Origin: Nymphaea colorata
Lineage: Eukaryota; Streptophyta; Magnoliopsida; Nymphaeales; Nymphaeaceae
Direction of reading: 5' to 3'
Length of the DNA stretch: 64,000 bases
Assembly (NCBI RefSeq): GCF_008831285.2
Contig: NC_045140.1
Coordinates: 17,296,370-17,360,369 of the forward strand
The stretch's first letter is position 1. The number at the start of each line of letters is the position of its first letter. The position numbers were made by a program, and so were the translations under genes. Under the pieces are notes generated by a model, which saw only the letters and a program-made list of their open reading frames with translations, did not search any database and was not told the origin of the DNA. Below, one piece after another: positions 13,483 to 41,900 of this stretch.

Positions 13483-16400
13483 ATGGTGAATATCTCCGCG
13501 GATTCGATCCGGCAATTCGAGTCTCTCATCGATCAAGGCGATTTTCTTCACTCTGCTCTCTATGCCCTTCTCTTTCTCCTTTTTTCCCCCTCAAAATTCC
13601 GCCTCTTGGCTTGTTTTCTCGTTCTCGCTAAACTCTAACCGCATGTTTTGCTTCGTTGCATCTTCCTCCTGTCTTGGATTCGGAATGCTGGCCTTCTGGC
13701 TCTCCATTTTTTACCGGAAATTCGTACAGTGGACGAGTCACTGAACAAGACGTTCGCGGTGAGTGATCGCGCCTGAATTTGTTTGATTTGTCTGGCTTTT
13801 TATCGTACTTTTCGTGTGGATTTGTCAGATCTTGTGGTTTTGCCTAGTTGTCCAGATCTCTTATTTTTTAAAAGCTGGTGGAATCGGCATTTAGAACTCC
13901 GATATTTCTTGGTTTGTAGCTTGTTCTTGTGTCTAATTCGATCATTCGAGTTCCCGACGTTATTGTGTTGTACATTCTGTGAGATAGCTTGTTCTGTGAG
14001 ATTTGTGTTTGTAACTGATGCTCATTCTTATTCTAGCGGGCCCTTCTTTACAATTCACGGCTCGCTCTCCGAGTTCTTCCTGTCACCGCTTCGCGTTGGT
14101 CATTCTTCGCTTACGTTTTAAGGAGTGTTTTGCTTTTCTAGTTCGGCTTTCATTTTCCTTTGTATCTTATTCTTCTCTGGGATACTTCGCACTGATGTTT
14201 TCCTTTGTCTCCTTTTTTATTGTCAAATGACAATAGCAGATTCTTCAGTCTTGCAGTTTCAAATTAGTTTTCTTTTTTTCTCATCGGAAACTAAAAAATG
14301 CGCTTTCCTCAATCCTCCTTTTCTTTCCTTCGTGAAATTAACATCAGCTTTTACTCGAGGAGTGTTTCCTTCTTCTCTTCTAATAACAAGAGTAAAATTT
14401 ATCTTAGTTGTATCTTGTTCTTCTTTTTTGAGGCTGTAGAAGGTAGTAGTTACTTCATCTGATACAGTGGGGGTGGTCAAAGGTTCGTCTACGAGTTTTT
14501 GGATTATGAGATAGCAGATGCTTTAATTGCGTTCATCCTGCAATCTAGATTAATCCATTATATTGCCTTAGATTTTGGTGCGCTTCCAAAAAGTTTCTTC
14601 TTTGCATCCCTTTGGTCTTCAACCGAGAATGTCTGATGCACAATTGCTCATGTTTTCATATTTTTTGGTTCATCAATGTTGTTGCTATCTTCAGTCTTTT
14701 TTGGTTGCTTTCAGTATCAGCTTCCTTGTGAGATCCTTGGTCACAATTATTGCACAAGTCCCAACCTTTTTTGTGCCTTAACTGAGTAGTTGCTATACCC
14801 GACAGGGTCTTGGTCTCTGCTTGAGTAAGGAACCGGAACCTATTCTATTTTGGGATTCTTCAAAATGTTGAAAAGTGACAATTTCTTGAACGGTTGGACC
14901 TACAGTTTGGACAAAACCCTGGCATTCTATTGACCTTGTAATTAGCTTTTTTTCATCAAGAAGCACTGTCAGCTGCAGCATCTTGATGCAGCATTGTGCT
15001 TCTGTCTTCCTATATAATGGTAAAAATTTAAGCTTAGTACTTAAATTTGCTCTTGAAGTTTGAGTATTGTGTCTCAGAAACTTTTTTTTATTTGCCCTAA
15101 ATGTGAAGCAATGAATGTGCCACACAAACCAATTGCATGTAAGTAAATTAGGTTTCACCTTGTCACTGATGGTTTTGATGTTCCTTTCTAATACTAAAAA
15201 TAAACTCTAACAGAGTGGCCATCTTCTGGAACATGCTTAATTGTTCAGTGATGATGACCACCTGATCTTTCCTTGAGGGAAAAAAAAATGTAAAGATCGA
15301 TTCTCCAATCCCCTTGGATTCTTGGACATCTAATTGCAATCTATGATCAATTTGCTGCACTTAAAAACGTGTTGCTTGTGGGCTGCATTTGGTAACCCTT
15401 ACACTCTTTTGATGACTGTTGGTGTAGGTAGGAAGTTAGAATTTTGAATATGATACTGTCCAGTCTTCAGTTGTATCTCCACCACCTTATCATGCAAACT
15501 TTTTGTCATTTTGTATTTGCAAGGTTTATTTCCAGCAGTTTCATTTTCATGCCTGATGCCCCTGATGTTAGCTATTTTCATTAGTTACAGGGCACATGAT
15601 AAACTTCCTAGTTTTGACTTTGTGTCGTTTTCTTCTCTTCTTCCACGGTCAAAAATTTATATAATTTCCTCCTATCCAATTTAAGCTGTTTAGACTGAAG
15701 ATCATATATATGCAAGCTAACTGAGCTTACTGTTTTTTCAGAACGTGCATCTGGGGAACCGAGTTGATACATTAGTAAGATTTCTGAAGGCCAGGGATGG
15801 GAATGTTTCAAAAGCGCATAAAATGGTTAGCTTGCATTTCTTCTTCTCAAATTAGATCAGTGACTTCTTTCATTTCAAGAGAAGCATAACACTTGCTTTC
15901 CTTCTATTAAGGGGGAATTTTTTTAGCTTCTTTCATTGGGAAAAGTGATGAAATTTAATCTCATTTATGGAACTCTGGTTACTATTGTAGTTGATGGATT
16001 GCTTGAACTGGAGAATACAGAATGAGATTGACAGTATATTAACTGTGAGTTTCTCATATGCTTCCTCAAAAGTTTTCTAACATGGGTAGCTCCACGATAC
16101 TCCAGTTTATCAGTTGGATGTTTTTTCTTTTCCCTCCGTGAATACATGTTCTCATGATTTGCTTTTCTGCTTTGCTTTGTCCTCAGAAACCTATTGTTCC
16201 AAAAGAACTGTATGGAGCAGTTCGCGATTCACAGCTCATAGGATTGTCTGGATACTCGAAAGAGGTTGGTACTTAGCATTTTTACTTTCTTAAGATGCCC
16301 CTCTTTTGTGCTTAAAGCTTGGTTCTAGCTTTGTTCTTGTGTTTTTGGATCTAGAAAGAGCATTTATTGGCAACTTTCCTTGGAACTAGAGGATATCTGC

Positions 16401-19400
16401 TTGCACTTCTAACAAGTCTCAGTTAATTGTAACCTTCCAAAGATCTCAGTTTGGCTTTCTTTCCAACAATTTCTCCTTAAGTTCCATAAGTTTCAAGCTT
16501 ATGCTTTAGCTAAGGTTAAAATGTTTTAATTATACTATTAGATAAGCAGAAGCATCAGCTAAATGCAATGGTGCATCTCCTTTTTTCAGAGGCTGCGTAG
16601 ATATTAACAGTCCAAAAGTCCTACCTTGAGATTGTTCTTTATTGAAGGCAACTATTTCCCGAAGGACAAGAAATTGTTCGCTGAAATCAAAGCTAATGTC
16701 AGCCTTCTAAAATCTTTGTTACCATGTCTTTACTCTTTATAAATGAAAGATATCAGGATCTACCATTCTTTTGCAGTTGCAGTACGTTTGTCACTTGTTG
16801 GTATGAGAGCTGTAAGACATAATAAATTGCAGTTTTTCTTTTACAGGGTCTTCCTGTCTTTGCAATTGGTGTTGGTCTCAGTACATTTGATAAAGCATCT
16901 GTAAGTGCCTGAGTTTCCTACATTGTCCTTTGCTTATGTCAGCACATGTACCAAATTCTAGATGCCATTTTCCTATTTGAACAGCAATTCACGTGATATC
17001 TCATTTCACTTGGTTTGCCTCAAATATTTATGCTCTTAAGTATGTATATGATCATAGGACCTAAATAATGCAAACTGCAAAGCATCATATGGTTGAGGAT
17101 GTAGGAAGTGCATTTATGTAATTGCTGAGTCTGACATTCTTATTTATTAGCTTTACTTGGAAAGAGCCGTATAAGCTGTTCATGGAAGTCCAATACATTA
17201 CGGTTGATGATTTATGTTTGCATAGACTGAATGTTAATATTTTTAACTTCTTACACTGATCAATTTTTAGCACAGTTGTAATTAGGAGACTTAAGCATCG
17301 GGACTAAGATTATAGATGTACATTACTGTTTTCCTCAGCCTATAGACATGTAATGCTTGTTTTAGATAATAGTACACGAGACATGGATCATCAGGCATGA
17401 GCGATGCTTGCAGATGTCAACAAACCAAGTTAGCAGTTAGTCAGATATTTAAAAGGAAGGATATTGTTTAGTCCAGCCAACAGAAAATTGAATTATGGAG
17501 AGAAAACAAAAAGACATCCAGAATAAGACTTAGACATCCTGAATAAGACTTCTCCTTCAGATTATGCACTTCAGTTTGGAAAAACTTGCTTTTCTGTACC
17601 ATGAAAATAACAAAGAATACAATGTTACTCATGCAGGCCTGTTATGTAGGTACCATTTTTCAGCAGTTACCATTCTAAGACTATTTTGCTCCACACTCAC
17701 GTTTTTTGTATTCAATTTGGACTTCAGTGTTCTTTGCTTTTCCTCTCTGTAGGTTCACTACTATGTGCAGTCACATATCCAAATAAATGAATACAGAGAT
17801 CGTGTCATTCTGGTGAGTTTATTGTTGATGTACATACTAATTCTTTTATATGTTTCTCTGATGCAGTTATACCTACTAAATTGTCAAGAGAAAAAATGGT
17901 TACCAATTTGTTTTTGTTTCTTGTACCTGAAGTTTTCTGTCTGTTCTCATTCTTTGTTTTCAGCCCACTGCCTCAAAGAACAATGGCAAGCATATAAGTA
18001 CCTGCTTGAAAATATTGGATATGACAGGACTGAAGCTTTCAGCACTAAATCAACTAAAGGTCTTCTTTTAACTGTTTAAGGTTCTGAAGAGTGAAAACTC
18101 TCTTTTTATGAGCTCTCGAGTTTTTCTTTATTATTATTATTTTTTCTATTTGTGAGGTTACTGTTCCCACAAATGTCTTGTTTTTCATTTTAATTGCATC
18201 TTGACTTACATAAAAAATATGGTTGATGTAATAGATCACTCCTGCTTTTAGGGGCCTTCAATTTTACTGCAGAGTACTTGATTACTTATGCAAATTCACC
18301 TGCATAATTTATCTTCAGCTGTCAGCACAGTTTTGGGTCGCAGCTTTTGGAAGAATCTCCTAGACATGTAATAGATATAGTTGGATTATGATTCAGCCTA
18401 GGTTCAAATTTGGTTAGTGTGGATCGTGATGTATCTTTTCCTTTTCTCCATGTTCTATCAAAAAAGCCCATAATATTTAATTTTGCGCCATCAATCCTCT
18501 AAAAGATTGAACCTAAAGACACATACACAACAAATTTATGTGTGTACTTACATATGTATGGAATTCAGGAGCATGAAAGTGAAATACAGACACACCCACA
18601 CACATGTAAGTGTTCAAGAACCTAAAAGAGAGAAATTTTTCTTGTTGATCTTATTGCAGCAAGTAGAACATTATAATTTGGAAAAGGTAAAAATGTCCTT
18701 TATTTGTTATAGATGTTTTTTCTGGGTTCCACGTTTGGGACATATAATGCTTTCTCTTTCTCTTCCATAAGTTCAATTGATCTCTATCTTCACATAGGAC
18801 TGCTTTTTCCTTGCATTTATTATTACTTGAGCCAAACAGAGGCAGAAAAAATATATGCGAAGCAAGTGGCTGCACATTCTTGAAGATTTTTAACAAAATT
18901 GCAATTTTATGGATGCCTGCACCAAATTTATTTAGTCTGCTATTTTTTATGAGCTTATGAATTTGTAAGATCTTTAGTCAACTATCCTTTGTAAATTAAC
19001 AAAACGTGTCCCATGCAATGCAGCTGTTGACAATCATATCTACCATTGATGATCTGAACTATCCAGAGAAGACGGATACCTACTACATTGTTAATGCTCC
19101 ATACATATTCTCAGCATGTTGGAAGGTGGTGTGTTTTTCTCTTAAACATTTTCGTTTATTCGATCTTTTTGCTGAATAGTTTTTTCTGACCTCTCTTGTA
19201 ATAGTGGTGCATGTAAGCAAACTTGCTCTTGGAGATACTGGTCAGTCTTAGCATCGCTAATTTTTTCTTGTCCATTTTCTTTGTTGTATAGGTAGTGAAG
19301 CCGCTTTTACAAGAGAGGACCCGGAAAAAGATACAGGTTTTGCAAGGCTGTGGTAGAGACGAACTTTTGAAGGTAAGGCTCTATAGATTTTTTAAAAAGT

Positions 19401-20874
19401 TCCATAGGCAAAACTACCCAATAACAGACATTTATGGTTTTTCTTTTTACTCTTTAGAGAGGGTTTATATCAGTGGCATAGCCAGAATTTTTTTTGTGGA
19501 GTGGCACTACTACATAATAACTTAATTTTAGACCGTTCAAAAATTCTTGGACCCTTCAAATGTATAGTAAAATATCGAGGGGCATTAATAGGTAATAAAC
19601 CAAATATATGGGTCCACATTGAGCAACTGCCTGCACAAGCCCACTGCCCACAATGACTCTTCCGCTGGTCCAGATGCTAAGTATTATTTTAGAGATTTTC
19701 CAACTTCCTGTTTCACATTCTTGTCAAAGTGGGGAAGTCCAGTTCCTGTGACGATTCTGCTAGTTGCTGGGCCTTTTACAAGGTTTATCGATTGCTTTAT
19801 CTTTGTTTCATGGGGTTGAATGTTCGTGTTTCTGCACATGATTGTGTTCACATGTTGATTTTGGAACGTACTTCCTTTCATAGATATGCTTAAACTCAAA
19901 CCTCCCTAAATGTGTATAGTTACAGAATCAAAAAGTTTGGTTATCATCTCCAATAAAAACGGATGGATTTTTTTCTTTTATCATTGTGACATGTCTCAGA
20001 ATTCCAGTTTGACTCATCTCTTTGCATTATAATGTGTTCATAAATGATTAACTTGGTCACTCGGCAAGACAAGTTTTTGTTTACGCTAAATTGATAGTTC
20101 CTTGTTGACCTCATTGAACATTTAAAGTTGTTCTCTGGAGCATGGAAAGAGGTATATCATCGTTTAGTGCGTACCTGTTTCTAGTGACCAGCGATCTTGT
20201 GATGCAACTCCTTGCCCATTCTGACATAGTCACCTGTTTTATTGTTCATTGTTATATATCAGCATCCTTTTACTTATCTTGTTTTCTAGTATTATTTGAG
20301 AAATACCCTTGCCTTGATGTCATAGCAGCAAAATATCTATCAATTATCGATTACGTTACATAGAAAGCCTTGTGATTTCTAGTTATGCATCAGCGGTCTC
20401 ACGCCAAGCAAATTCTGTTGGCTTTGTATTCAGATTTGTCTTCCATCGAGTTATCTCCATAATTTACTAAATAGAGTTATACAAGTGCTGGCCAATCTTT
20501 GGAGCAATTAAACAACGAAAATTAGCTCAACATCCTGTATATTTGTGGTTGTTTTGTAGATAATGGACTACGCATCCCTCCCTCATTTCTGTAGAAGAGA
20601 AGGATCGGGTTCATCAAGGCATTACAATGCCGAGGTAGATGACTGTTTCTCCTTGGACCACTCCTTCCACCAACAAATGTACAGCTATATCAAGCAGCAG
20701 TCGTTAGGTTCACAACTCACCATGCCCGCACCTCAAGGTTCTTTCCATGTGCGTTTCCCTGAGCCTGACCCTGAAGGATCAATGATTGCCGAAACTATTG
20801 AGTCAGAATTGCACAGACTTGAAGGTCAAAATTCACATTGTAATGCAGGATCTCTTAAGATCAATGGCGAGTGA
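13483..20874 (+). CDS. SEC14-like phosphatidylinositol/phosphatidylcholine transfer protein (CRAL-TRIO domain)
   Basis: Eleven coding exons give 335 residues: 13483-13537, 13730-13758, 15742-15825, 15991-16044, 16187-16264, 16847-16900, 17753-17812, 17964-18059, 19024-19125, 19292-19372, 20560-20874. The reading phase is continuous across all joins. The product matches the plant SEC14 cytosolic-factor family end to end: a CRAL-TRIO N-terminal helical part at about 20-75 (VRFLKARDGNVSKAHKML), then the lipid-binding CRAL-TRIO domain at about 80-235 (DSQLIGLSGYSKEGLPVF, DMTGLKLSALNQLK, ISTIDDLNYPEK, NAPYIFSACWKVVKPLL). The tail carries FHVRFPEPDPEG and ends LKINGE. Family knowledge: cytosolic or membrane-peripheral exchange of phosphoinositides, without a membrane span. 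Exon 1 ends CAAG|GC, so intron 1 appears to be GC-AG rather than GT-AG. The start is chosen because MVNISADSIRQFESLIDQ aligns with the usual N-terminus. All other introns are GT-AG; intron 10 is 1.2 kb and holds a small element fragment. Confidence 0.95.
19471..19600. mobile_element. Element fragment inside SEC14-like intron 10
   Basis: It starts CAGTGGCATAGCCAGAA, followed by a T-run and GTGGAGTGGCAC, resembling the left end of the GGGGCGGAGCCAG family. GAGGGGCATTAATA occurs further right. Boundaries are approximate and the right terminus is unclear. Confidence 0.4.
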
Positions 20875-24152: not shown

Positions 24153-24356
24153 ATGGAGCCACTTGCAATTGTAGCTTGTACTGGAGGTGTGATTGGGCAG
24201 TTTGGTATCATCATGTTGCGATTCCGGCCAGTTTTCGACGTAGTTTGCAGGCTGATTGATTGTCTCAGAAACCCGAGCCCGCTGCCTGCGAGGGCTGTCA
24301 CTGCTGCTGCCATTATAGAGGGATTAGAAGCACTGGGCACTCCTCACCAAGCCTGA
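24153..24356 (+). CDS. Unrecognised 67-residue microprotein, copy A
   Basis: A single-exon frame of 67 codons with A at -3 and G at +4 of the ATG. The family is not recognised. Layout: a hydrophobic small-residue-rich segment at residues 3-22 with a GGVIGQFG motif, a basic/amphipathic stretch (RFRPVFDVVCRLIDCLRNP, 23-41), a proline-rich hinge at about 41-47, and an alanine-rich helix-like tail (AVTAAAIIEGLEAL, 48-61) ending TPHQA. Cysteines 9, 32 and 37 are shared with copies C and E, and C9 and C32 or C37 are traceable in B and D. The hydrophobic start could be a membrane anchor or signal; the sequence does not decide. Copy A differs from copy E at 7 of 67 residues but also has about 11 synonymous codon differences. 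Function is unknown. Confidence 0.7.
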   Translation: MEPLAIVACTGGVIGQFGIIMLRFRPVFDVVCRLIDCLRNPSPLPARAVTAAAIIEGLEALGTPHQA

Positions 24357-25428
24357 GACTTTATTGAGAGCACATTGTCGCATCTTTGGCTATGTGTACT
24401 TCTTTTATAGTATTATTGGACATTGTCCCATTCACCATCTCTTTGTCAATGAATCTATAGGCAACCGGCCCTTTAAGAAAGGCCAGTCGAAACTGTGAGT
24501 TTATAAATCTTCTTTAGATTCTTCTAGGGTTCAAGCGGTGATGTATTATCACCAAATTCCTCATCATTATTATTCTATAAACTTGTGCTTCTGTTTCACG
24601 TTGGCCCCTGTTAAAATTTCGAAATTGTAATTCTAATTTATGTGAAGGAAAAGAGAGAGAGAACAAATAAATTCCTCACTTCATCCAACTCAACTCATTA
24701 TTAACAAAGGTAGAATGGAGACGAGAGAAAATTGGGAAGATCAAATTGTTTGGCAATAACTGCTATCTTTCCTGACTAAACGTAAACCAATCTATCTTCA
24801 TTTTTCGTCTGCACATTATGCACTGTTGATGTCGTAACAATATGCAAGGATCTTTATTTCTTCTATATTTTGTGAGTATATGTGGCATATATAGGTGACA
24901 AATTAGTTATTCAATGCAGAAAGTATGATTTCTGAATTTGCAATTTTTTTGGGTAATGTTGATCAATCATCAATTTCGGCATTTCTACATGAAAAGTACA
25001 TGGTGGTTAATCTGATGTATCCGGAACGTGAGATTTCAACTAACAGTTGTTGAAGCTTAAATTTGCATGAATTATTTTTCATGAAATACTCGTACCCCTG
25101 ATGACAGCAAACAAACATTAACCAAACAATGCCAAAATCGGTATGAATTAGAAACTGGTACCGTTCTTGATCTCCTGGTTTTGGCACGTTAATCTCTCAA
25201 CTTAATTAAGCTCAAACCACCTTCCTCCCCAAACATTGCCACTATATGTATCACCCAGTTTCTCCGAGAGAAACCTGTTCCGGCCGCACCATGCACAGTA
25301 AAGGAGCGGAGGTCATTTTGATGATATATTAAAAGGATTGTCTTCCATTGTTTTTTTTTACTTTTTTTTCATTTTCAATTTTGTCTTTACAAAAAAACAA
25401 TAGCAGGTTTGAGTTTCTTCCATCTGCA

Positions 25429-25432
<4 letters not shown>

Positions 25433-25476
<44 letters not shown>
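25433..25476. repeat. (CT)n microsatellite at the 5' end of microprotein copy B
   Basis: About 20 CT units directly abut the first recognisable codons of copy B. They replace the first six or so codons present in intact copies; in copy C a short CT run lies just before the ATG. Confidence 0.9.
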
Positions 25477-25868
25477 GTAGCATGCACCGGAGGCGTCATC
25501 GGCCTGTTTGCCATCATAATGATGCGACTCCTACCAGTTTTTGACATAGTATGCCCAGCAGGGAGCCAAGACATTGGTGGGCATTGCATAAAATTTGGGT
25601 CATAATAATGTAAAGTTTTACCCAATATAATGAAATTTTTGATGGACTGGCGTGAGCAGTGGCCCACCCGAACCAACAAGTAACTCCGCTACTGAGTATG
25701 CCGACTTATGACTGCCTCCGCAATACCCCAACCAACAAGTAGCTCCGCTACTGAGTATGCCAACTTATCGACTGCCTCCGCAATCCACAGCCGCTGCCTC
25801 CGAGGGCTGTCACCGCTGCCACCATTGTGGAGGATATCCAAGCACTAAGCAGACCACATCAAGCATGA
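25477..25868 (+). pseudogene. Decayed microprotein gene, copy B
   Basis: The start codon and the MEPLAI segment are absent, replaced by a CT microsatellite. Residues equivalent to 7-32 remain (VACTGGVIG, then FAIIMMR and PVFDIVC). Sequence from about 25,556 interrupts the gene. It contains a roughly 110-base insert, then two tandem copies (period 59, from 25,671 and 25,730) of the segment coding VC.LIDCLRN; the first copy has lost frame. After the interruption the right half is intact (LIDCLRNPQPLPPRAV ... ALSRPHQA, TGA at 25,866-25,868). As it stands it cannot encode the 67-residue product. Confidence 0.8.
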
Positions 25869-26199
25869 ACCTTTCTGTCTCCTTCCTCAAGGACTAGAAT
25901 TGCTTCATATCTCCTAATTTTCTCTTGTTACCAACTTTGCAAGTAATCTTTTGTGAGAGAAAAAGGCAGCTTTCATAGCTTTCAAAACTTTGTAATATAA
26001 CTTCAAGAATCTAAGCATGTCGCTTTCTATTATGATAAAATTATTCACAAGTATTTGTGCAAAGATGGATATTTGTTTTCCTGCTAGCTTTCACTACTTT
26101 TCTTCTTTGGTTCATTCATATAATATGATATTGTCATATTCTGCAATGCACATGCATGCTTTATATTCATATAAATGCAACACGCTTACACATGTGCAA

Positions 26200-27640
26200 T
26201 AAGCTTAAAACAGAGTATTGCTGATTAGTTGAAAAATCGAGATTTCCCGTAACTGCATGTATACTTTGTTCAGTAAATTACAAATAATAGAGTGATTGCA
26301 ATTTCCAAGTCTTTTAATACAGAGAAAACAGCTTCTTGCTAATTAATATGCTTACATGAGTATGTATAGAAACCGAAACAGTTCCATTTCAAAATAAGCT
26401 TAAAACCAGATTATTTCTAATTAATTGACTTAATAAAACCAAGCAGTTGCATTTCAAGTTTATTTGGCTTGAAAACAGTTTATTGCTTATTAGTAGACAG
26501 ACGCCGAACCCGATCAAACACTTGCGTTTCGAGTTTGTATTGTAATTACTCTAGTTTGGGATGAAAATCAAGGGCCCTAACAAAATTTTATTGTTCACAA
26601 GCCTGTCTCAAAAATTCAGGCAGCTTCATGACAATTTATGTTAAATTATTTTATGAATCTACTTCAATTTTTTAGAACTTGACAAGTTTATGGAACAATA
26701 ACAATTTGTTAGGGCTGCTAAATCGCCATAAGGGCCTGAGTCATCTTTAACTGGATCTTATTCAGTCGGAAATGGATCCTCAGAGTGGGACCAGGTATCA
26801 CACATAAACTAAAAACCTTATTAGGGTTAAGATCCGACAAAACTGCTTCAAAACGTGGGATGTAGAACAAATTTAACATCCACTTAATTAATCACATCAG
26901 ATTCAGATTTAAGAAATGACACTAGATTGGATTCAATATATATATATATATATATATGATAATTCTGACAATCTAGAATCACCCAGCCATTTGGTCAGGA
27001 TTATTCATCTGTAGTGGATAGATGGTTGAGAGAAAAATAGAGAGAAAATGATGCACATTAATAAGCGGAGACAAAAATACTCAACACTTTTTTTTTTCTT
27101 ATAACCGTTGAACATGTTGAATCAGATGGCTATATTATAAGGTTGAGTGACTAAAAAACTAGAATCATCATTCAATTCAATTTTCCTTTGGCAAACGTGA
27201 AACCAATACCACTCGCCGACTAATTTGGTTCGGAAACTGAAACGACTGGCTTCACTCGCGCTTATCTTTAATTAATGAAGACCAGCAATGAGAAGGTTAC
27301 AAGATTGGGTTAGCCAGGTCTTTAAGGAAAGCCCAATCTTGTAACCGGTAATATATATCTGGATCCCTTTTGCACCAAAATCCAACAGGCCTGTTCAACC
27401 CACCTAAATCTTGATACGCTGTACCATGTATCTCATCAAATCTGGACACGAATATATAAATCCCAAATCGCTTACATCTCTTAGAACAGGTTTAAAACGA
27501 CGCTGAACAAGCCCTAGGTGCTGGACCTTAACCCACTGCTGGGTCCAGCCATGAGTGAACCACTAAGCCGGCTCAGTTTGGTTTGGTGGATGAAACCCAA
27601 AAAAAAGAAATTATTCCTGTATCGGACACCAATAAGAGCA
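26200..27640. other. Spacer between microprotein copies
   Basis: No gene is seen. About 26,370-26,540 holds diverged copies of a roughly 70-base repeat (GCATTTCAAGTTT..GGCTTGAAAACAG). Part of the TAGGGATGTCAA-type element interior lies at 26,880-26,940, followed by a (TA)n run at about 26,938-26,957. The piece at 27,480-27,630 resembles 22,250-22,370 and 30,590-30,750. Confidence 0.5.
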
Positions 27641-27644
27641 TGGT

Positions 27645-27839
27645 CTAGGCATGGGCCCGATGCCCGAAACCCAAGCCCAAGCTCGACTCGACTCGATCCG
27701 GTTACAATAAAAAAAATTAAAATATAAAATAAATTTTTAAATATAAAATATATTTTTAGTAATAAAATTTGTATTATTAAAAAAATAAAAATAATATTTA
27801 ATCATTATCGGGTATCCGTTGATACCCCGTGCCCACCTA
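27645..27839. mobile_element. Small MITE-like element with TAGG..GGGC ends
   Basis: The left end TAGGCATGGGCCCGATGCCCG and right end GTGCCCACCTAT form an imperfect inverted pair around an extremely AT-rich core (27,700-27,800). It is non-coding. A lone stretch beginning near 3,757 (GGGTGGGCATC..TCGGCCCGATG) looks like an end of the same family. Confidence 0.5.
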
Positions 27840-28034
27840 TAGGTGTGGGCACCATATCTGGTTGGACGTAGGTCCAGTGCCAAGATTGACATGAACAACA
27901 ATAAGGAAAACGTTCTTGATCTCATGGCTTCAGCACGTTACTCGCGCAACTAAATTCCCCTTCCTCCCCAAACACTGCCACTATTTATGCGTCTCCCTGC
28001 TGCTTTCATTTCCATCACAATCTCTCTCTCGATC

Positions 28035-28238
28035 ATGGAGCCACTTGCTATAGTAGCATGCACCGGCGGCGTCATTGGGCAGTTCGTGATCATCATGCTG
28101 CGATTCCGGCCAATTTTTGACGGAGTATGCCGACTTATCGACTGCCTTCGCAACCCGCGGCCGCCGCCTCCAAGGGCTGTCACTGCTGCCGCCATAGTGG
28201 ACGGCCTCCAAGCACTAGGCAGACCACATCAAGCATGA
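28035..28238 (+). CDS. Unrecognised 67-residue microprotein, copy C
   Basis: A single-exon 67-codon frame with the same start, length, stop (TGA) and cysteines 9, 32 and 37 as copies A and E. The ATG has A at -3 and G at +4. Compared with copy E I count 7 amino-acid differences (at 18, 27, 30, 55, 56, 59, 62) and about 24 synonymous codon differences, the pattern expected of a gene under constraint. An upstream in-frame ATG at 27,987 would add 16 hydrophobic residues, but it overlaps a CTATTTATG TATA-like sequence and is not shared by the other copies, so the 28,035 start is preferred. The layout is as in copy A, with the hinge read as RPPPPR. Function and location are unknown. Confidence 0.75.
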   Translation: MEPLAIVACTGGVIGQFVIIMLRFRPIFDGVCRLIDCLRNPRPPPPRAVTAAAIVDGLQALGRPHQA

Positions 28239-28449
28239 ACCTTTCTGTGTTCTTCCTCAACGTTCAGGTCGCTTATTCCCTGTGGCATAACTCAAGAATC
28301 TAAGCATGTGGTTTTGTATTATGAGAAAATTATTCACAAGTACTTTGTGCAAAGGTGGAGATTCTTTCCAATTGCTTCTCTTCTTTCCTTCCATCATACA
28401 TAATATGCTATCGACAAATTGCACGCACATATAAATGCGATACACTTAT

Positions 28450-31040
28450 TCAAACATATACACATGCAGATGAGTATGTGTGTTATAATTTTCAAACAAA
28501 CTTAATTTAACTTTTCAATGTTCAATGGCTAGTTTTCTTCGCTTTGTGAGTGATTGCACAAGGAACTTGCAATTGCAAAGCTTCCTTCGCTTAGAGGACA
28601 GACAGCAATGTAAATATCTCTAGGAACAGTTTAGTGTTAATTAGTAGGCTTAAGATGAGCGTAGAAACAGGGCAGTTGCATTTCAAGTGTGGCTTGAAAA
28701 CAGTTTACTGCTAATTAATAGGCTTAATATGACATAATAACAGAACAGTCGGGTTGAAAACAGTTTAATGCTAATTAGTAGGCTTATTTTGAACATAGAA
28801 ACCGAAGAGATGGATTTCAGTTTTTGGCTTCTAATTACAACAGATTGCAATGGAACGGGCCTAAGTTGCGTTAGATCTGATTTTGCAGGAAATGGATCCA
28901 CAGGTAGATAGCAGGTACGACCCATAAATTTGAGCCACTTGAATTGAGATTTAAGAAATGGCATCATATTGATGTCGGGTTTTGGATTTTAATCTGGATT
29001 CAGTTTCAAATAAAGATCTTTGTGTACAATATCCATATATTTTGAAAGTTGGTTTTTAATATATCGTAATGCGGTTCGGATTTGGCTGTCTATATAAAAA
29101 GTTGGATTCAGATTCATATGCAGAAATGAAGCACGGATTCAGATTATGAATTTAGAAATCATATTTGGATATGGTATAGATTTTTTTTTTGTTCGCATTG
29201 GAATCGAATTTGAATTCTGAATGCCTTAACATCTTTAGATGCTAGGAACAAGATGTCACACAATCTGATGAAACGATAATACATTTGGCTAAGTTAAAAC
29301 CGGACATCTTTAAGGAATAGTCCTGTATCGATTATTTTAAAGATATCTTTAGTGTTTATAAAACGCGACTAGCAAGCCCTAAAATGAGCGGTGAGGAAGT
29401 GGTCTGTGGGGAGTTGTTCCTTCCACGGTTGTCAGATTTGGTGACGAGTGTAGACAGTTCTTCTGAGCTCATTTGATTTATCCTTTTTATGTTTTGTTTT
29501 CTCTTCTCTCCCGTCTTGTTATGTTTTCTCCTCTAAAACTTCTTTTTTAATAGTTTTTCCCTTCTTTTTCTTTAGCATACTTATTCTCCTTTTTATGTTT
29601 TATCTTCTCTCTCCTTTTGTTATGTTTTCTCCTCTGCAACTTCATTTTTAATAGTTTTTCCCCTTCTTTTTCTTCAACATACTTTTGTTATTTTTTGTTT
29701 CACCATGAATCTAATTCTCCCCATTGACCTTAAATCAATAGTTTTTAGCTTGTAACATGCATTTAAAGTCCAAGCTATTGATACGTGCGGTATGTTTGGA
29801 TGGTGGATCTCTCAAATTACACATTTTTATGCAGCCTCAGAGTAACTTGTAACATGCATTTAAAATCCAAGCTATTGATATCTGCGGTATATAGATGGAG
29901 GATCTCTTAAATTATACATTTTTGTGCAGCCTCGGATCTTATGGCTATCAAATGCAGCTTAAGTTTCCAGGGAAAGGCATTTAATTACTTACTCCGAGGG
30001 AAAAGATGGTTTTGTCTTGCTTACTTAACTCAACTTATATATATGTTTGGTGTCTTAGATTTCTATTTGGAAACTCATTTCCTAAAAGACTTTTTCACAC
30101 ACATGATATCACGTTTGAAGCTTTCTCATGACATGTGAAACTCCTTTCGTTGGTTTGCTGGTACCCGGACCTCGGTTACAAGGTAATCAATTGGTTACAT
30201 AATGGTGTAAATCACCTCCCCTACCCGCTTTTTATTGACCAATATCAAAATTAGCTTAACATAAGTAACTAAATCTAAAAGTTAGCATCGGGCCGGGTAC
30301 TACCAAATCTGAAGTCCGAGACTCATTTTTTTTAATAACAATATCTAAATTAACTTGACATGAAAGTAAGTAAATCTAAAAGAGGGCCTTTTTCTTGCTT
30401 ATCAACTCAACATGTCTATATCTGGAAATTCATTTTCAAGAAAACTGTGTTCTTCAAACCTGATATTAATGTTTGAAGAAGCTTTCTTATGAAATGGAAA
30501 ACTCCTTTCCTTGGTTTTCCGCTGTCAAGATCTTGTAGATTGTAACCTACTTAGATCCATTTATTGCATAAGGTCGGGCACAAAAATATCTGAATCCGAA
30601 CCAATTTACATCCGTGGAACAGATTTAACATGGTATTCGGACAAGCCGAAGCCCGCAGAGCCGGATCTTAACCCGCTGCCGGGTCTAACCAAGAGTGAAC
30701 CGACTCCGTTTGGGTGCCTTGGCCAAACCAAGATAGTCCTGTATCGATCATTTAAAGATATCCATGAGCCTTTATTAATGAGAGGTTAGTTGCCTACCAA
30801 CGATCTGTGATGAAGTGGCTTGTGGGTTGAGTTTCACCACAATTAACCGATCAATTGACGATCAAAAAGCGATGGTCTGAGCTCATTTTCCCTCTCTATC
30901 GTTTTTTCTGTCTCCAATTTTTTCTTGTGGTGTGCATCTCTACTCCCCACACTTCTCGATAATAAAGTTGTTTTAATCCTTTAAACACATCGCTTCCTCA
31001 AACTGTTTTCGGTTCAAAGTGCCTTTCTTCTTCTAAATAG
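28450..31040. other. Spacer with nested, diverged duplications
   Basis: No gene is supported. About 28,610-28,830 holds several degenerate copies of the GCATTTCAAG..GGCTTGAAAACAG repeat. About 28,940-29,230 holds interior sequence of the TAGGGATGTCAA-type element. A module with AAACTCATTTCC, ACATGATATCACGTTTGAA and CTCCTTTC.TTGGTTT occurs at about 29,985-30,170, again at 30,380-30,530 and a third time at 31,600-31,760, so this spacer too grew by duplication. Confidence 0.5.
29749..29937. repeat. Tandem duplication, 97-bp period
   Basis: Two diverged copies begin CTTGTAACATGCATTTAAA at 29,749 and 29,846 and both run through CCAAGCTATTGATA and TGCAGCCTC. They differ by several substitutions and short gaps. 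Confidence 0.85.
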
Positions 31041-31088
31041 TAGCATTGCATGTGCCACTGTATCTCACCTACTTCAGAAACTCATCTC

Positions 31089-31243
31089 CCAGATGCACCA
31101 GTATTTTCATCGGACAGTTTGGAATCATCATGTTGCGATTCCGGCCAGTTCTCGGCTTAATTTGCCAACTTTTCGATTGTCTCCGGCACCCACAGCCGCC
31201 GCCTCCAACGGCTGTCCCTTCTTCTGCCGCTATGGTTAATTAG
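31089..31243 (+). pseudogene. Truncated microprotein gene, copy D
   Basis: Homology begins at the codon for cysteine 9 and runs in one frame to the stop at 31,241-31,243: CTSIFIGQFGIIMLRFRP, then LICQLFDCLRHPQPPPPTAV and a shortened end AAMVN. The MEPLAIVA start is missing and no in-frame ATG precedes the homologous part, and about ten C-terminal residues are lost. Cysteines 9, 32 and 37 and the GQFGIIMLRFRP core survive. It is most likely a decaying copy, unless an upstream exon supplies a start. Confidence 0.7.
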
Positions 31244-31839
31244 ACCGACCAAGAGTTGAGATCGTGTCGGGGAGCTCGGCGTGGCACCTCTGGCTTCGTC
31301 ATGGCCTACAATTTTTCCCCCATTTCTAAGTCCTCTCTCCATGGTTCTATAAATAGGCTTTTCAAGAATCAGAGAATTCCTTGAACGGAGGATTTAATTG
31401 GATCATATAGTGCCAAATACATAGCCCATTTCAGAAGCTCCCACAACATCGTCTTCAATGTGAGGAACTGTGGGAAAAAAATGAATTGAAGACGAATGGA
31501 GAAAAAGAATCATGTTCTCTGAATGAACATGGCTTGTCGACCCGGTATTTTAATCTTTAGGGGAAGGAATTAGATTAGTTACTGTCGCGAGCAAAACAAG
31601 AGAGTTTTCTCTTGCCAATTACCTTCACTTGTAGATGTTTTGTGTCGTGATTACTACTTTGAAACTCATTTCCAAGAAAAACTGTTTCTGAAACATGATA
31701 TCACGTTTGAACATTTCTCTTGATTTCGGAAGCTCCTTTCCTTGGTTTTCAGATATCCAGATCTTGCTTAGTTTGGGGAATCTTGAAGACCATGACCTTG
31801 TAGCAATAATGCTTGCCTTACAGCGAACAGGGATCTGTC

Positions 31840-32990
31840 TTGCCCCAGCTTGCAAACGAGGAAGAAGAGGATGAAAACAAGGCATGCACTCTGCAGAACT
31901 TTTTCTTGTTGGAAAAAAATGTAGTAAAATCAGTTTGAATCTACCGATCCAAATCAAATTGGTCCAACAACTTTTTTATGAATGTACCATCCGAGTCAAT
32001 GGTAGTACTTATAAAATGACTATGATGCGATTCGATTCAGCTGATACACTGAACCCGCCTGCTACCAAATTGGATAATGAAATCGATATCAATAAAATTG
32101 AAAAAGAGAAGTTCATACGTACAAGGGTTTCAAAAAGCTTTTCTTTTGTATTGATGCATGTGAAAATTCAAGTTGACAAAAAACAACAAAGGAATCATGA
32201 AAGCACTAGAGATGGTGAAGAAAGAAAGTGTGAAGAACTTTTCCATCTATTTTCTAGTGGGGAACTTAGATTCTTGGATAAGTCATTGTTAGGAGCTCGT
32301 ATGCAGTTTTTGCATTCCAATTGTGCAACGAGAAGTTATGTCGCGAACAGAATAACAACAGCGTTAGGTAAATAACCGATCAGACCATCAAAACTAATCT
32401 CCCCAAAAGGGGGAATATGTTCTTCATCTCATGTTTCAGCAAACTGTCAACTCCAAACTAATTTTAGAACAAACGGCCTTTATATATATATATATGTATA
32501 CAGACACACACACATCAATCTGGCCTGCTTCATACGATAACTCTATTTCTTTCTGTCTCTCATTGTTTTCATGGAGCCACTTGCAATAGTAGCCTGTACC
32601 GGCGGTGTGATCGGGCAGTTTGGCATCATCATGTTGCGATTCCGGCCAGTTTTCGACATAGTCTGCAGGTTGATCGATTGTCTCCGGAACCCGCGGCCGC
32701 CGCCTCCAAGGGCTGTCACTGCTGCTGCCATTATGGAGGGATTGGAAGCACTGAGCAGACCTCACCAAGCCTGAGTCTCTGTTGAGTTGCTCATTGTGCA
32801 GAACTTGTGGCTACGTACGTTAACCTTTTAGCATATAGGGCGAGTGCTGGAATCGTCCCATTCCCCATCTCTTTGTGAACGAATCTGTAGGCAATTGAGA
32901 TCAAGAAATGCCTGTCAATATGTGAATTTATGGATCTTCTTTAAATTCTCCAAGGATTCAAGCTTATGATCTTGTATCGTCGACAAGTTA
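31840..32990 (+). repeat. Segmental duplication block E (paired with 23,380-24,550)
   Basis: This block carries microprotein copy E. Its flanks align with those of copy A on both sides for several hundred bases. A 163-codon frame at 31,884-32,375 lies within it, but the equivalent stretch of block A does not stay open, so it is not called as a gene. Boundaries are approximate. Confidence 0.7.
32571..32774 (+). CDS. Unrecognised 67-residue microprotein, copy E
   Basis: A single-exon 67-codon frame with a TA-rich TATA-like tract (32,480-32,500) about 70 bases upstream. Layout: a hydrophobic small-residue-rich segment (PLAIVACTGGVIGQFGIIML, residues 3-22), a basic/amphipathic segment (RFRPVFDIVCRLIDCLRNP, 23-41), the RPPPPR hinge (42-47) and an alanine-rich tail ending SRPHQA. 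It carries the shared cysteines 9, 32 and 37. It sits closer to the consensus of all copies than A or C does. An antisense frame covering most of it is also open, but it changes far more between copies than the sense frame does. I do not recognise the family; role and location are unknown. Confidence 0.75.
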   Translation: MEPLAIVACTGGVIGQFGIIMLRFRPVFDIVCRLIDCLRNPRPPPPRAVTAAAIMEGLEALSRPHQA

Positions 32991-37291: not shown

Positions 37292-39567
37292 TTACATGAC
37301 CTTCTCACCAGGAAGATAGGATGGCATCCCAACTTCCGCCTGAGTTTTCTTCTTGTGGAAAATACCGCTGAAGCTTGAGAGCGTTATCTTTTTCAAGGTC
37401 GACGACCGCTCTATTTTCCGGTTATTGCTGCTCACTGTTTTTTCAGACCAGCGAACTTTCGCGGTGGCCCCTGGAGCTGGCGCCGCAGCCAAAACCTTGC
37501 TCACATCGTCTGGCTTATTTTGGATCACTGGCGCCTGAGGGGGCAATTCTGCAGCAGCCCACTTCTTCTGTTCACGTTCTCGCCACCTCTTCAGCTCCCC
37601 TTCAACCGCTTTCCTTGCAGCGTCTGCCATCTGCGCTCTTCTGATAGCTTCATTTGTTGCCACCTCGGTGTCTTCCATTTCCTTCCTGATCGATTCCAGC
37701 TTCTGCAATGCCTCCTTCTCACTAGCTTTCACGGCTTCCACTTGTGCCAAGGCTGCAGCAACTTTCATCCCAGCCAGACTGTCCGCATCGTTTACCTTCC
37801 CGTTCAAAGAGTCATATTCCTCCTTCGATATTGTGATGTTAGCTCCGTGCTCTGACGTTGACGCGCGGGCAGCCTTTGTCTTCTCAGACAATAGGTTGAT
37901 CTGATCAAGTGCACTCGCTTCAGCTGCTTTGGCTTCTTCCGCCTCCCTCAAGGCAACCCTCAGCCGCTTCTCTGCTTCCTCAAGTGCCAATCTCATACTC
38001 TCTGCCTCCACTTTCAGGTCTTCAGCTTCTAGCCTCATTTGATCTGCCTCTGCCTTCGCCTCTTTGGTCTCCAAAGATAGCTGCTCAAGGGTTGACAAAA
38101 GTTCATCAGAAGCACCCTTTCCTTTGGCTTCAGAAGAAAGTGCTGCATCAAGCTCGGCCCGAGCACTTTGAAGCTTGAGGTGTAGTTCTGCAGCAATATT
38201 TTCAGCTTCTGCCTCTTTTGCCTCCAACTCTTTGTGCTCCTTTCTGACATTCTCGAGTTCTGCCTTCAATGATTCCAGCAAATTTCTCTGAGCTTGTTCT
38301 TCTTCTGCAACTTTGTAGAGGACTCCCTTTGCTTCAGTTAGATCGGCGGTGATGTTTGCCAAAGAATCTAATTGAGAAGCTTTGACTGAAGCGAGCTGCT
38401 TCTGCAGCATTCCTACTTCAGCCATTTTTGCAGTCAATTTGGCTTCAAGGTCATCTGCAGTTTCAGATAGAAGCTCCTTCTGCAATGCTTCGAGTTTCTT
38501 ATGCTTTTGTTCAATGGCTGGATCAGATGAGCATTCCTCGGCAGATTTCATGATATTAGTATGTTCCTCCACGGCTTGCAAATGGGCATGCTTGACACGG
38601 GCAAGCGAATCATTAGCAGCAGTAATCTCCTTCGTGAGTGCATGGGCGAGATCTGTATTGGTTTGAATGGCTTGAGCTGCGTCCATTGCCTGCTGAATAG
38701 CACAAGCCCTGGCATCCATTGATGCAGAAAATTCTTGCCGCATTCTTCTCAGCTCCTGCTTAGCTCCATCTAGCTCAGCAATTACACTTGAATACCGTTC
38801 TCGTGCGTCCTCCAAGGCAGCTTGTGTTGAAGTTCCATTGCTCAAAGGATGTCCAGAATTTGCAGCTTCAAGTTCTTTGGCTTGAAGCCTACATGCTTCG
38901 GTTGCCTTGGTAGCAGATTCTTTGGACTCATTTATGCAATTTAGCTTGCCAGTCAGATCGCTGATAGCTTTCCTTGCCTTCTCTAGTTCATCAAGGGCCT
39001 GGGCCTTTGTGGTTTCCGCACTCTGTAGCTGTTCTTTATATTTGTTCAGTTCCTTCTGTGCCAAGTGAAGCTGCTTCTCCTTTGAAACTCTTTTCTGCTC
39101 AAAATTCAACAAAAAGTTCATAACTACCAGTGGCTTTTGAGGCAAGAACGAGGTTATTAATGAACATAATGTTACTTTAAGTTCATAAGTTGAACTGCTT
39201 TCTTGCTTAAACTAACACTTCTTCTCATGGTTGGTTATCATTTGAAAAAATAAATAAATTTAAAAACTTTTGCATGCAAACCTTGCGGTTTCAACATCTT
39301 ACTGAAAACTGTGGAGCTAATTCCATAATTAGGATTGTCAAATGATTGATCTATGTAATTACATAAAATATACGAGATATTTTAATCGAGACATACCTCG
39401 AGATGAGGTGGTTTGAGTTTCTTTTCGGTGAGCTTCTCTGCAGGAAGTGCTCCTTCACCAAACAAGGTGACAGCAGCTTTAACGGATTCAAAAGGGGCAC
39501 TGGTGTCGATCTCGCCAACCTCTGCTTTGGCAGAATCGTTAGCACCTTGACGTGCTTTAACAACCAT
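37292..39567 (-). CDS. WEB-family (WEB1/PMI2-related) coiled-coil protein
   Basis: Two coding exons on the minus strand, 39,567-39,397 and 39,094-37,292, joined in phase 0 through a 302-base GT-AG intron (CGAG|GTATGT ... GAGCAG|AAAAGAG), give 657 residues. Exon 1 carries the family signature EIDTSAPFESVKAAV at residues 19-33. Exon 2 continues KRVSKEKQLHLAQKELNKYK and is nearly all heptad-like coiled coil, rich in Ala, Glu and Lys, to about residue 550, then a basic Ser/Lys tail ending PGEKVM. Family knowledge: WEB1 and PMI2 form a cytosolic complex that sustains blue-light chloroplast movement through actin; other members of this DUF827 group are less defined, and I cannot place this one. The long frame itself extends 17 codons upstream of exon 2 into the intron, but the exon 1 join fits the family far better. 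Confidence 0.92.
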
Positions 39568-41900
39568 CCTCGCCTTATGGCTTTAAAAAGCAACTATATT
39601 CTGCAAGCATAATCATAGGTTAGAAACGAGACAAGAGGAGCAAGAAGAAGGATGGGGACTAAAACAGAATAATAAGAATGGGGACGTCTCAGAAGGAGAG
39701 AGAAGAATTAATTACCTTCAGCAAGAAAAAAAAAAAGTTTACTGCGGATAAAATAGCAAGCTAATTAAGCTCACAAGGGTCTACCTTACTCTACACTTTT
39801 TCTAAGAAATTCGCTAACGTAGTTTATCAACATAAGTACCAGGAATGTCTTGTCAGATTTCCAAGACTTATGTAGCGAGCACTCAAAACAGTTCATAATG
39901 TTGGAGTTACAGAATAAAAGTAAGGCAACAGTATTCTCTGTTCCAACCTAAAAAGAAACCGCCTATCCCCACCAAAGGAATGCTCTTCAGTAAACAGACC
40001 AATTATTCCTTCCTGGTCCATAATCCATCAAGCATTTCGATCGATGGCAGGCCCTGATAGCAAAAACTAAAAGGTTTATGCCGCCAGAAGCATGCTATGA
40101 ATGTAAAAAGCAAGAACTATTACATACAAAAGTAAGCCTACATCCACAGCAGACACTCCTCGCTCAATATCGAGGAGTATATTGAGTTCCTAGTGCCAAC
40201 CTCCCAGAAAACTGGAACCGAAGTTCTTCCTTTATTAGTTTTCACTTTTCACATACATATTTGATTATCTGATGTCAGCTGTCCCATTTCCTCTGGAAGT
40301 AGGTAGCCAACTTCGACCTACTGCATCTGCTTGCTCACAGATTGCTGAAGGACGTCCCGGTACTGTTTATAGTTCAACTTGTTTGCATTCTTTGTTCGTC
40401 ATGAACGGAATCGTGCGGGAACTGAATAATATACACATATTTGTCGTCCACGAAAACTGCTTGCCTGTACAATCTCAAGGAAAGTTATAATCGGCTAAAC
40501 CTACTTGTCCACAAACTTAAGCCAAGTTATGAGCCTCTTTGTCCCCATAGTGGAACTTCCCAGCTATGGCTGTTGCCCACAAGCCCAGGGCTCTTGTTCA
40601 TCTGGTAAATCTCAGTAGAGATACGTCACCAGTTCGAACGACACTCCGGGTGTACTCGTTTGTGAGGAGAGGGAAACCGTCAAAGGTTTAACCAAGTGGT
40701 GGCCCGCCGGCCACTGACATATGGTCAGGGACGGAAAGTTTTACCTTGGCATAGCCCTGTAAGAAATGAAATAAAATGAGATAAGTTCTCAATTTCCATT
40801 TTTTCTCAAACATAGGAGCATCATGGGAAACGGCACGAAGATGCTACCAACTAAAGGTTAAGTTGGCACCTAACAGTTAACACAAGTAGACGACTCCCAA
40901 TTGAGACATCGGAAGCTCGCTACCGATCTTCCGGGCAGGACTCAAACGAGACATCAACAAATCATTTGCGCTTCAACCTTCTGTGTCGTCAAAAGGTCAA
41001 GCCTACCAGCACCAAGAGGGCCTGGGAGGATGACAAACGTGACAGAGACGCCACGGTCTTTGAGAAACCAGGAAGGGCGAGGAAGAAGACGAAGCTAAGC
41101 GGGATGCCGGCAGATTTGACCTTAGTCAAACGACTGGTTGGACGATAAGACGCCTTAACATTAAGAGCGTCCCCGAAACGGCCGGAAAATCCGCGAAATG
41201 AACATGCAAGAAATTGATATTTTTCGCTACGAAACAGGAAAGAAAAAGCAACGAAGATGCAAAAATCTTACATTTACTACAGCTGAGATATTTCAGAATG
41301 ATGAAGAACAAAGGAAGTTAATGATCGAATATCCAAAAAAATCAAGAGAACGCCAAAATTCACCCCTTACCTCAAAAATTGAAAATCGGACGGGAAAAGC
41401 CTTTTCACTTCCTCAAAACTCGACCTTTTACCCAGGGCTCATCCGTGCTGATCATCGTCCATGTCAACCGCCCAAAACACCCGGAGACGGTAAAAGAAGG
41501 TGCCTAAAACGGCGAGAATGAGACGATCGGGCGAGTCTCGCACGGTACACGCCACCCGACCGCTCCTCCGCCAGCGACCAGCCAAAGACCAGCTCGATCA
41601 CCTCGTTCCCACTCTAACCCGCAACTCGAAGAGCCTTCCAGCCAAGCTTCCGGAGAAACCGCTTCGAGCACGTGGTTCCTGGAGGCTCTGGAGCGAAAAG
41701 GTTTCTCAGGTGGGATTCCGGCCGCCCGTCAGCGGTTTCCAGACTGCGGTTTTCCGTCCTCGACCGGCGGAATGTGTCCCGAGAGAGAGAGAGAGATTCA
41801 AAGAGTGGCAAGCGACTTTAGGGTTCTTTATGTGTTTTTTTTTTCTCTCGGTCCTCGTTGCTTTTCTTTTTTTTCTTTTTTTCCACCGTCCAAAAATGTC
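39568..41900 (-). other. Probable 5' leader, leader intron and promoter of the WEB-family gene
   Basis: On the minus strand GCTTGCAG|AATATAG puts a 3' splice site at 39,600/39,601, leaving 33 bases of leader before the ATG. The upstream leader exon and promoter are probably in the GC-rich block at 41,450-41,830, which on the minus strand has AACCCTAAAG near 41,820 followed by a CT run (41,781-41,795). The donor is not certain. Open frames here have no family signature. Confidence 0.4.
40565..40770 (+). mobile_element. Possible tRNA-derived SINE fragment
   Basis: AGTTCGAACGAC (about 40,631) resembles a Pol III B box (GGTTCGANNCC) and is followed by ACTCCGGGTGTACT, wording typical of plant SINE heads. 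CATCTGGTAAATCTC, about 35 bases before, could be a weak A box. No poly(A) or poly(T) tail or target-site duplication is clear, so this is tentative. Confidence 0.35.

What the first reader, a model, noticed from the sequence alone, without database searches (positions are those of the whole stretch)
24153..32774. Tandem array of an unrecognised 67-residue microprotein family
Five copies lie in 8.6 kb, all on the plus strand. Three are intact with the same length, ATG, TGA and cysteines 9, 32 and 37. The layout is a hydrophobic small-residue segment with GGVIGQFG, an amphipathic basic stretch, a proline hinge and an alanine-rich tail ending PHQA. It matches no plant peptide family I know. Tandem growth plus copy loss is typical of a fast-evolving accessory family such as signalling, defence or reproductive peptides; which of these applies is inference.
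Basis: partly seen in the sequence, partly recalled or inferred. Interest (0 to 1): 0.88.

Follow-up and report, generated by a model that had tools for sequence, protein, structure and literature searches.

The report
Ancient water-lily microprotein gene family
A water-lily chromosome carries three intact copies, side by side, of a tiny protein gene that matched none of the protein libraries searched; a fourth intact copy sits in the matching duplicated region of another chromosome, so the family looks old and preserved rather than new and fast-changing.

Summary
The array is real: three intact 67-codon ORFs (24153, 28035, 32571, all +) and two broken copies. Third codon positions change most, and a codon model gives omega 0.11 within the array, rejecting neutrality (p 3.6e-13). 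A genome-wide search found a fourth intact 67-codon copy on another chromosome (C8, 42-48% identical, no indel). It lies between the same neighbours, a Sec14/CRAL-TRIO gene and a WEB/WEMBL gene, whose synonymous divergence (1.30-1.35) fits the peptide's (0.95-1.5). So the family predates that segmental duplication, most likely the Nymphaealean whole-genome duplication. 'Fast-evolving' is not supported for the array; the branch to C8 is freer (omega 0.53). Only one of the three cysteines is in C8. No significant match in Pfam, NCBIfam, PDB, viral or prokaryotic collections; other plant genomes could not be searched. Best reading: a single-exon membrane microprotein (hydrophobic helix 4-22, amphipathic stretch to 39, proline linker, C-terminal helix), probably regulatory; this last part is inference. 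A copy-4 fragment also sits in transposon-like elements at two other places. Expression is untested.

The parts
24153..24356 (+). Copy 1, intact 67-codon ORF
   Evidence: groups with copy 5 (dN 0.052, dS 0.354; support 0.847)
25471..25868 (+). Copy 2, degenerate: codons about 7-32 at 25477-25554 and 31-67 at 25755-25868, split by about 200 bp with a 59-bp tandem duplication; start region replaced by a (TC)n microsatellite
   Evidence: groups with copy 3 (support 0.965)
28035..28238 (+). Copy 3, intact 67-codon ORF (an in-frame upstream ATG at 27987 would give 83 aa)
31109..31243 (+). Copy 4, degenerate: no start, internal deletion, early stop
32571..32774 (+). Copy 5, intact 67-codon ORF, closest of the array to the C8 paralogue (48% identity)
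28152..28189 (+). 38-bp tract in copy 3 (codons 40-51) identical to copy 5 at 32688-32725; probable gene conversion
   Evidence: permutation P 0.0056; the other two pairs P 0.31 and 0.35
31110..31274 (+). Copy-4 segment also carried by transposon-like elements on C1 and C10 (89% and 84% identity)
31484..31868 (+). Downstream flank of copy 4 carried by the same C1 (to 31868, 84%) and C10 (to 31815, 88%) elements
13477..20871 (+). Upstream neighbour: multi-exon Sec14-like (CRAL-TRIO) gene, collinear with C8:16794454-16800369 (extent from translated matches, not a gene model)
   Evidence: CRAL_TRIO_N above cut-off on the exon at 15733-15849, CRAL_TRIO just below cut-off (22.0 vs 22.6 bits) on the exon at 19018-19128
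37292..39582 (-). Downstream neighbour: WEB-family (WEMBL, PF05701) gene, collinear with C8:16804841-16807778
   Evidence: (1.2e-46)

Best explanation
This is a small family of intronless plant genes, each encoding a 67-residue membrane microprotein. One ancestral gene lay between a Sec14-like gene and a WEB-family gene. The segment was duplicated (most likely by the Nymphaealean whole-genome duplication). The C3 descendant expanded in tandem to five copies, of which three stay intact under strong purifying selection with some gene conversion; the C8 descendant is a single, diverged copy. Shown by sequence: intact ORFs, coding-type selection within the array, collinearity, age comparable with the flanking gene pairs. 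Inferred: the hydrophobic segment 4-22 spans or inserts in a membrane; with E2 in front and R23, R25, R33 and R39 behind it in the array proteins, the positive-inside rule puts the C-terminus in the cytosol. The amphipathic part (24-39), proline linker (41-47) and C-terminal helix (51-62) would then bind a membrane-associated partner, so the protein would work as a membrane-held regulatory or adaptor microprotein. Probabilities: protein-coding gene 0.96; pre-duplication family with a collinear paralogue 0.93; membrane-inserted 0.65; regulatory partner-binding role 0.35.
For: Coding: position 1/2/3 differences 9/4/32, 6/2/14 and 9/2/25 in the three array pairs; dN/dS 0.076, 0.147 and 0.086 in this frame. 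0 of 2000 neutral simulations reach the observed amino-acid conservation in any array pair. Codon ML: array omega 0.107 vs 1, LRT 52.8, p 3.6e-13. Intact 67-codon paralogue on C8 without indel. Collinearity on both sides, same orientation, with a further 26-residue anchor at 60617-60694. Between the flanking genes (4471 bp on C8, 16426 bp on C3) the ORF is the strongest conserved block, E 7e-17; the next, E 1.6e-6, is 74 bp beside the WEB gene. Flank dS 1.353 (WEB, 598 codons) and 1.297 (Sec14, 232 codons) against 0.95-1.5 for the peptide. Membrane: best 19-residue Kyte-Doolittle mean 2.0-2.3, starting at residue 4 (array) or 6 (C8); hydrophobic moment highest within 24-39 in the three array proteins. 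AlphaFold2 on the window proteins: helix 3-39, helix 51-62.
Against: No expression or translation evidence could be obtained. One antisense frame is also largely open (ORFs of 75, 81 and 62 aa at 24113-24340, 27950-28195 and 32543-32731) with dN/dS 0.20-0.34 in array pairs, although the sense frame is lower and the antisense one has one or two stop-bearing codon columns per pair within the ORF span. Summed apparent insertion free energy of the segment is unfavourable (+0.3 to +2.0 on a recalled, unweighted scale), so a peripheral rather than spanning helix is possible. Of R23, R25, R33 and R39 only R33 is kept in C8, and in C8 the top hydrophobic moment lies at 53-66, not 24-39. The model has pTM 0.32 and no residue with pLDDT >= 90. 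Invariant residues in 3-24 do not fall on one helix face (P 0.80). The C8 branch is not distinguishable from neutral (p 0.16), and against copies 1 and 3 the C8 amino-acid counts are within the null range (24 and 123 of 2000 simulations; 0 of 2000 against copy 5), so coding of C8 rests mainly on its intact frame and collinearity. Flank dS exceeds the published KS peak of about 0.9, by a simpler method. Homologues in other plants could not be searched.
Confidence: 0.6

Rival explanations
1. A secreted signalling or defence peptide: residues 1-22 act as a cleaved signal peptide and the proline-bearing, charged C-terminal part is the active peptide.
For: N-terminal hydrophobic stretch, small size, tandem copies with loss, conserved C-terminal H65 and A67.
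Against: No basic residue before the hydrophobic stretch and, in the array proteins, several just after it, the reverse of a usual signal peptide (general knowledge; no signal-peptide predictor was available). The N-terminal part is at least as conserved as the C-terminal part (against C8: 13-14 of 26 residues at 1-26, 7-11 of 24 at 44-67). Two of three cysteines not conserved. Omega 0.107 within the array gives no sign of an arms race.
Confidence: 0.15
2. A small subunit or assembly factor of an organelle (mitochondrial or plastid) membrane complex.
For: Many such subunits are single-helix proteins of this size (recalled). Purifying selection within the array.
Against: No basic residue in the first 22, so no usual presequence; such subunits are usually conserved across plants and would probably match Pfam, yet there was no significant match. 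Tandem arrays are unusual for them (recalled).
Confidence: 0.13
3. The ORFs are not translated; the conserved unit is a non-coding RNA or regulatory element.
For: No expression data; a snoRNA cluster lies 1.7 kb downstream of copy 5.
Against: Differences concentrate at third positions of the sense frame and amino-acid changes are far fewer than neutral. No Rfam match at gathering score over the ORFs. No indel among four copies in 67 codons while the aligned flanks carry many.
Confidence: 0.03
4. A transposon-encoded sequence, with the array and dispersed pieces being transposon copies.
For: Two dispersed pieces on C1 and C10 lie in elements whose left part recurs at about 36 other places (my count of the capped list).
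Against: Among the listed places only C1, C10 and the window itself cover the peptide piece. The C1/C10 piece shares the deletion and early stop of copy 4. Intact copies are few, collinear and, in the array, constrained.
Confidence: 0.03

Closest known systems
RTFL/DVL (ROTUNDIFOLIA4/DEVIL) non-secreted plant small peptides
   Same: Short plant proteins in a multigene family; ROT4 is membrane-held through S-acylation, mainly at one cysteine (PMC10897394: start of abstract in the listing and two passages), and RTFL/DVL peptides act by binding BSK kinases (PMC10613268: start of abstract in the listing only). A possible analogy for how the present family may work.
   Different: No significant Pfam match of the four proteins. 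The layout differs: an N-terminal hydrophobic helix rather than a conserved C-terminal domain (RTFL layout recalled).
ARGOS/OSR small plant membrane proteins (recalled)
   Same: Small plant membrane proteins with proline-rich stretches that tune growth (recalled).
   Different: ARGOS carries a leucine/proline-rich two-helix domain (recalled); the present protein has one hydrophobic helix and no significant Pfam match.
Pack-TYPE transposons (gene-fragment-carrying non-autonomous DNA transposons; PMC8903248, abstract and section list)
   Same: The C1 and C10 elements carry a copy-4 fragment inside sequence that recurs across the genome.
   Different: This concerns the dispersed fragments only, not the gene family.

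Membership tests
RTFL/DVL peptides | Match to the family's curated profile (that Pfam holds one is recalled) | tested here: not met
   Pfam scan of all four proteins: one hit in all, DUF1634 at E 0.17, 12.4 bits against a cut-off of 27.5, for copy 1
RTFL/DVL peptides | Membrane association and kinase partner | not testable with these tools
   needs localisation and interaction experiments
Cysteine-rich defence or reproductive peptides | Conserved set of cysteines | tested here: not met
   of Cys 9, 32 and 37 only Cys 37 is present in the C8 paralogue
Cysteine-rich defence or reproductive peptides | Fast or positively selected protein evolution | tested here: not met
   omega 0.107 within the array, LRT against 1 p 3.6e-13; the branch to C8, 0.53, is not distinguishable from 1 (p 0.16), so faster change there is not excluded
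Retained whole-genome-duplication pair | Collinear neighbours on both sides in both segments, with comparable dS | tested here: met
   that the segment belongs to a genome-wide event was not tested here
Pack-TYPE / PIF-Harbinger-like element (C1 and C10 fragments) | Terminal inverted repeats, TTA-type target duplication, gene-fragment cargo | tested here: inconclusive
   cargo shown; inverted arms of 21 nt, 76% complementary, at C1 and TTA on both sides read by eye at C1; C10 ends look decayed; no transposase looked for
Membrane (single-pass) protein | Hydrophobic helix of about 19 residues | tested here: inconclusive
   Kyte-Doolittle 2.0-2.3 over 19 residues and helix 3-39, but a recalled insertion scale gives +0.3 to +2.0; no dedicated predictor available

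The most novel reading that the evidence does not exclude
A membrane microprotein family older than the Nymphaealean whole-genome duplication (published estimate 117-98 Ma, PMC7015852, passage), without a significant match in the protein-family libraries searched, that after that duplication split into a constrained, gene-converting tandem array and a single diverging copy: a new class of plant membrane regulator restricted to early-diverging flowering plants.
Probability: 0.3. Interest if true: 0.6.

Novelty: new member of a known kind. Interest (0 to 1): 0.42.

Why it matters
Small ORFs of this size are often left out of gene catalogues (general knowledge; whether these four are annotated could not be checked). 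Here the evidence of coding is internal and strong: purifying selection among tandem copies plus an intact partner between the same two neighbours in the homologous segment. If restricted to water lilies, it is a microprotein family that has lasted through a large-scale duplication with no significant match in the libraries searched; if found elsewhere, the Sec14-WEB neighbourhood gives a precise address to look for it in other plants. As a gene family without known function it is interesting but not exceptional.

Tried and rejected
Transposon origin: rejected for the intact copies. Antisense or alternative frames: one antisense frame shows lowered dN/dS (0.20-0.34 in array pairs) and holds unequal ORFs of 75, 81 and 62 aa, but it has one or two stop-bearing codon columns per pair and the sense frame is lower still; the other four frames give about 0.7 or more in array pairs. 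A deeper paralogue beside another WEB-family gene on C2 (C2:15710400-15716400, one side only, one of the other WEB places): best E 1.5, nothing. Weak hit C1:21542192 (E 0.19, 33%, two stops): treated as chance. Relatives outside this plant: 0 confirmed of 20 pattern matches in viral contigs and 0 confirmed of 140 in bacterial/archaeal genomes; PDB none by single sequence and by profile; NCBIfam one stray hit for one of four members, E 0.081. Paper search for four peptide words: 0 papers; this does not show that the proteins are unpublished or unannotated. Interface in the hydrophobic helix: not supported (P 0.80); invariant residues of 26-39 lean to one face, P 0.077. Fold search was not run because pTM was 0.32. 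Rows dropped: ORFs lying left of the window (in L017) were skipped, so collinearity upstream of the window was not examined, mirrored rows were left out. Paper listings (the last empty) and passages of PMC11548254 and PMC6265338 gave nothing used in the argument.
Full report
OBSERVATION. The three intact ORFs (24153-24356, 28035-28238, 32571-32774, +) each have 67 codons, ATG and TGA. Two further copies are broken: copy 2 has a TC microsatellite in place of its start and is split by about 200 bp; copy 4 has no start, an internal deletion and an early stop. All lie on the + strand. Copy 3 reads GGVIGQFV, not GGVIGQFG.

CODING. Differences between copies fall mainly at third positions: 9/4/32 (copies 1-3), 6/2/14 (1-5) and 9/2/25 (3-5); NG86 dN/dS 0.093/1.226, 0.052/0.354 and 0.070/0.814. 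In 2000 neutral simulations per pair, none was as conserved as the observed protein for the three array pairs. A codon model on copies 1, 3, 5 and C8 gives omega 0.107 for the array branches (against 1: LRT 52.8, p 3.6e-13) and 0.53 for the branch to C8, which is not distinguishable from 1 (p 0.16); two ratios fit better than one at p 0.022. For C8 against copies 1, 3 and 5, 24, 123 and 0 of 2000 simulations were as conserved. One antisense frame is largely open too, with dN/dS 0.20-0.34 in array pairs, but it has one or two stop-bearing columns per pair and the sense frame is lower.

WHERE ELSE. The window is C3:17296370-17360369 of a 407.8-Mb genome in 783 contigs. A protein search of that genome gave 9 places: the three intact copies, copy 4, two pieces of copy 2, an intact full-length paralogue at C8:16802357-16802557 (43% identical to copy 1) and fragments on C1 and C10 (the latter E 0.013). 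Searching back with the C8 protein gave 6 places: itself, the three intact copies (42-48%), copy 4 (E 0.024) and one chance-level hit.

COLLINEARITY. C8:16794454-16807778 matches window 13477-39582 in order and orientation: a multi-exon Sec14-like gene upstream and a WEB-family gene downstream, with a further 26-residue anchor at 60617-60694. The interval between the two genes is 4471 bp on C8 and 16426 bp on C3; the ORF is its strongest conserved block (E 7e-17 to 3e-14 for the three intact copies), followed by 74 bp beside the WEB gene (E 1.6e-6); the remaining hits, E 0.004 or weaker, are no better than the best of a reversed-sequence control, E 0.002. dS of the neighbours is 1.353 (WEB exon, 598 codons) and 1.297 (Sec14 exons, 232 codons), like the peptide against C8 (0.95-1.5). 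So one gene stood here before the segment was duplicated.

SPECIES. Its size and contig number resemble Nymphaea colorata (409 Mb, 804 scaffolds; PMC7015852, passages). The forward primer of a Nymphaea nouchali SSR marker (table passage of PMC8965595) occurs exactly once in the genome, and its reverse primer lies downstream with one mismatch. The product here would be 177 bp with a GAA-type repeat, against 126-145 bp and a TA repeat in the table, so the match supports the genus but is not perfect. The published whole-genome duplication has a KS peak near 0.9 and an age estimate of 117-98 Ma (passages). My flank values are higher, by a simpler method, so the link to that event is likely but not proven.

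HISTORY OF THE ARRAY. A tree groups copies 2+3 (support 0.965), 1+5 (0.847), and 4 with the transposon-borne pieces (1.000). A 38-bp identical tract between copies 3 and 5 (codons 40-51) is longer than expected (permutation P 0.0056; the other two pairs 0.31 and 0.35), suggesting gene conversion. Leaving those codons out keeps dN/dS low (0.04-0.09 in the array; 0.21-0.45 against C8).

TRANSPOSON-BORNE FRAGMENTS. On C1 and C10 the copy-4 segment (31110-31274) and its downstream flank (31484-31868 and 31484-31815) lie in elements 95% identical to each other over 799 aligned columns. Parts of the element recur: 59 matched pieces, from 40 scored of 146 candidates, so a lower bound; by my count its left part lies at about 36 places besides C1 and C10, its right end also at C9 and C12. 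Among the listed pieces only those of C1, C10 and the window cover the peptide piece. A cargo-less member with both ends lies at C9:7033573-7033947. Ends at C1 are GGACCCGTTTGATG and its near-inverse, with TTA on both sides read by eye; assignment to a PIF/Harbinger-like Pack-type element is by recalled features. Because the cargo has the deletion and stop of copy 4, the element most likely captured it from copy 4 or its sister.

PROTEIN. 26 of 67 residues are invariant among the four proteins. Hydrophobic segment at 4-22 (6-24 in C8), Kyte-Doolittle 2.0-2.3; the hydrophobic moment is highest within 24-39 in the array proteins but at 53-66 in C8. AlphaFold2 on three window sequences gives helix 3-39 and helix 51-62, pLDDT 72, pTM 0.32; nothing beyond secondary structure should be read from it. 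Charges in the array proteins suggest the C-terminus in the cytosol (inference); of R23, R25, R33 and R39 only R33 is kept in C8. Of the three cysteines only C37 is shared with C8.

KNOWN FAMILIES. No significant match in Pfam, NCBIfam, PDB, viral contigs or bacterial/archaeal genomes; the weak hits are DUF1634 at E 0.17 and one enoyl-CoA hydratase model at 0.081. Plant genomes other than this one could not be searched, so lineage restriction is untested. RTFL/DVL peptides are the nearest working analogy (membrane-held non-secreted small plant peptides: PMC10897394, start of abstract and two passages; PMC10613268, start of abstract in the listing), not a family assignment.

VERDICT. Function is inferred only.

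Noticed in passing
34447-35690: Five tandem SNORD14 (U14) snoRNA genes on the + strand; none at gathering score in the three searched pieces of the C8 segment (L019, L039, L040).
   Followed up: partly
31110-31274 and 31484-31868; C1:2863649-2864221; C10:8756883-8757394: Copy-4 fragment and flank carried by a dispersed DNA-transposon-like element; most of the 209 bp between them in the window (31275-31483) is missing from both elements.
   Followed up: partly
33017-33104: Four perfect copies of a 22-bp unit (TTTGATCATGCATGAAATCGTG) downstream of copy 5.
   Followed up: no
29969-30178, 30419-30535 and 31559-31770: Related repeats between the gene copies, also related to the C1/C10 elements.
   Followed up: no
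C7:7911426-7911941 and C7:6984012-6984527: Two WEB-family fragments with identical score and one TGA each on opposite strands of C7: a recent duplication or an assembly duplicate.
   Followed up: no
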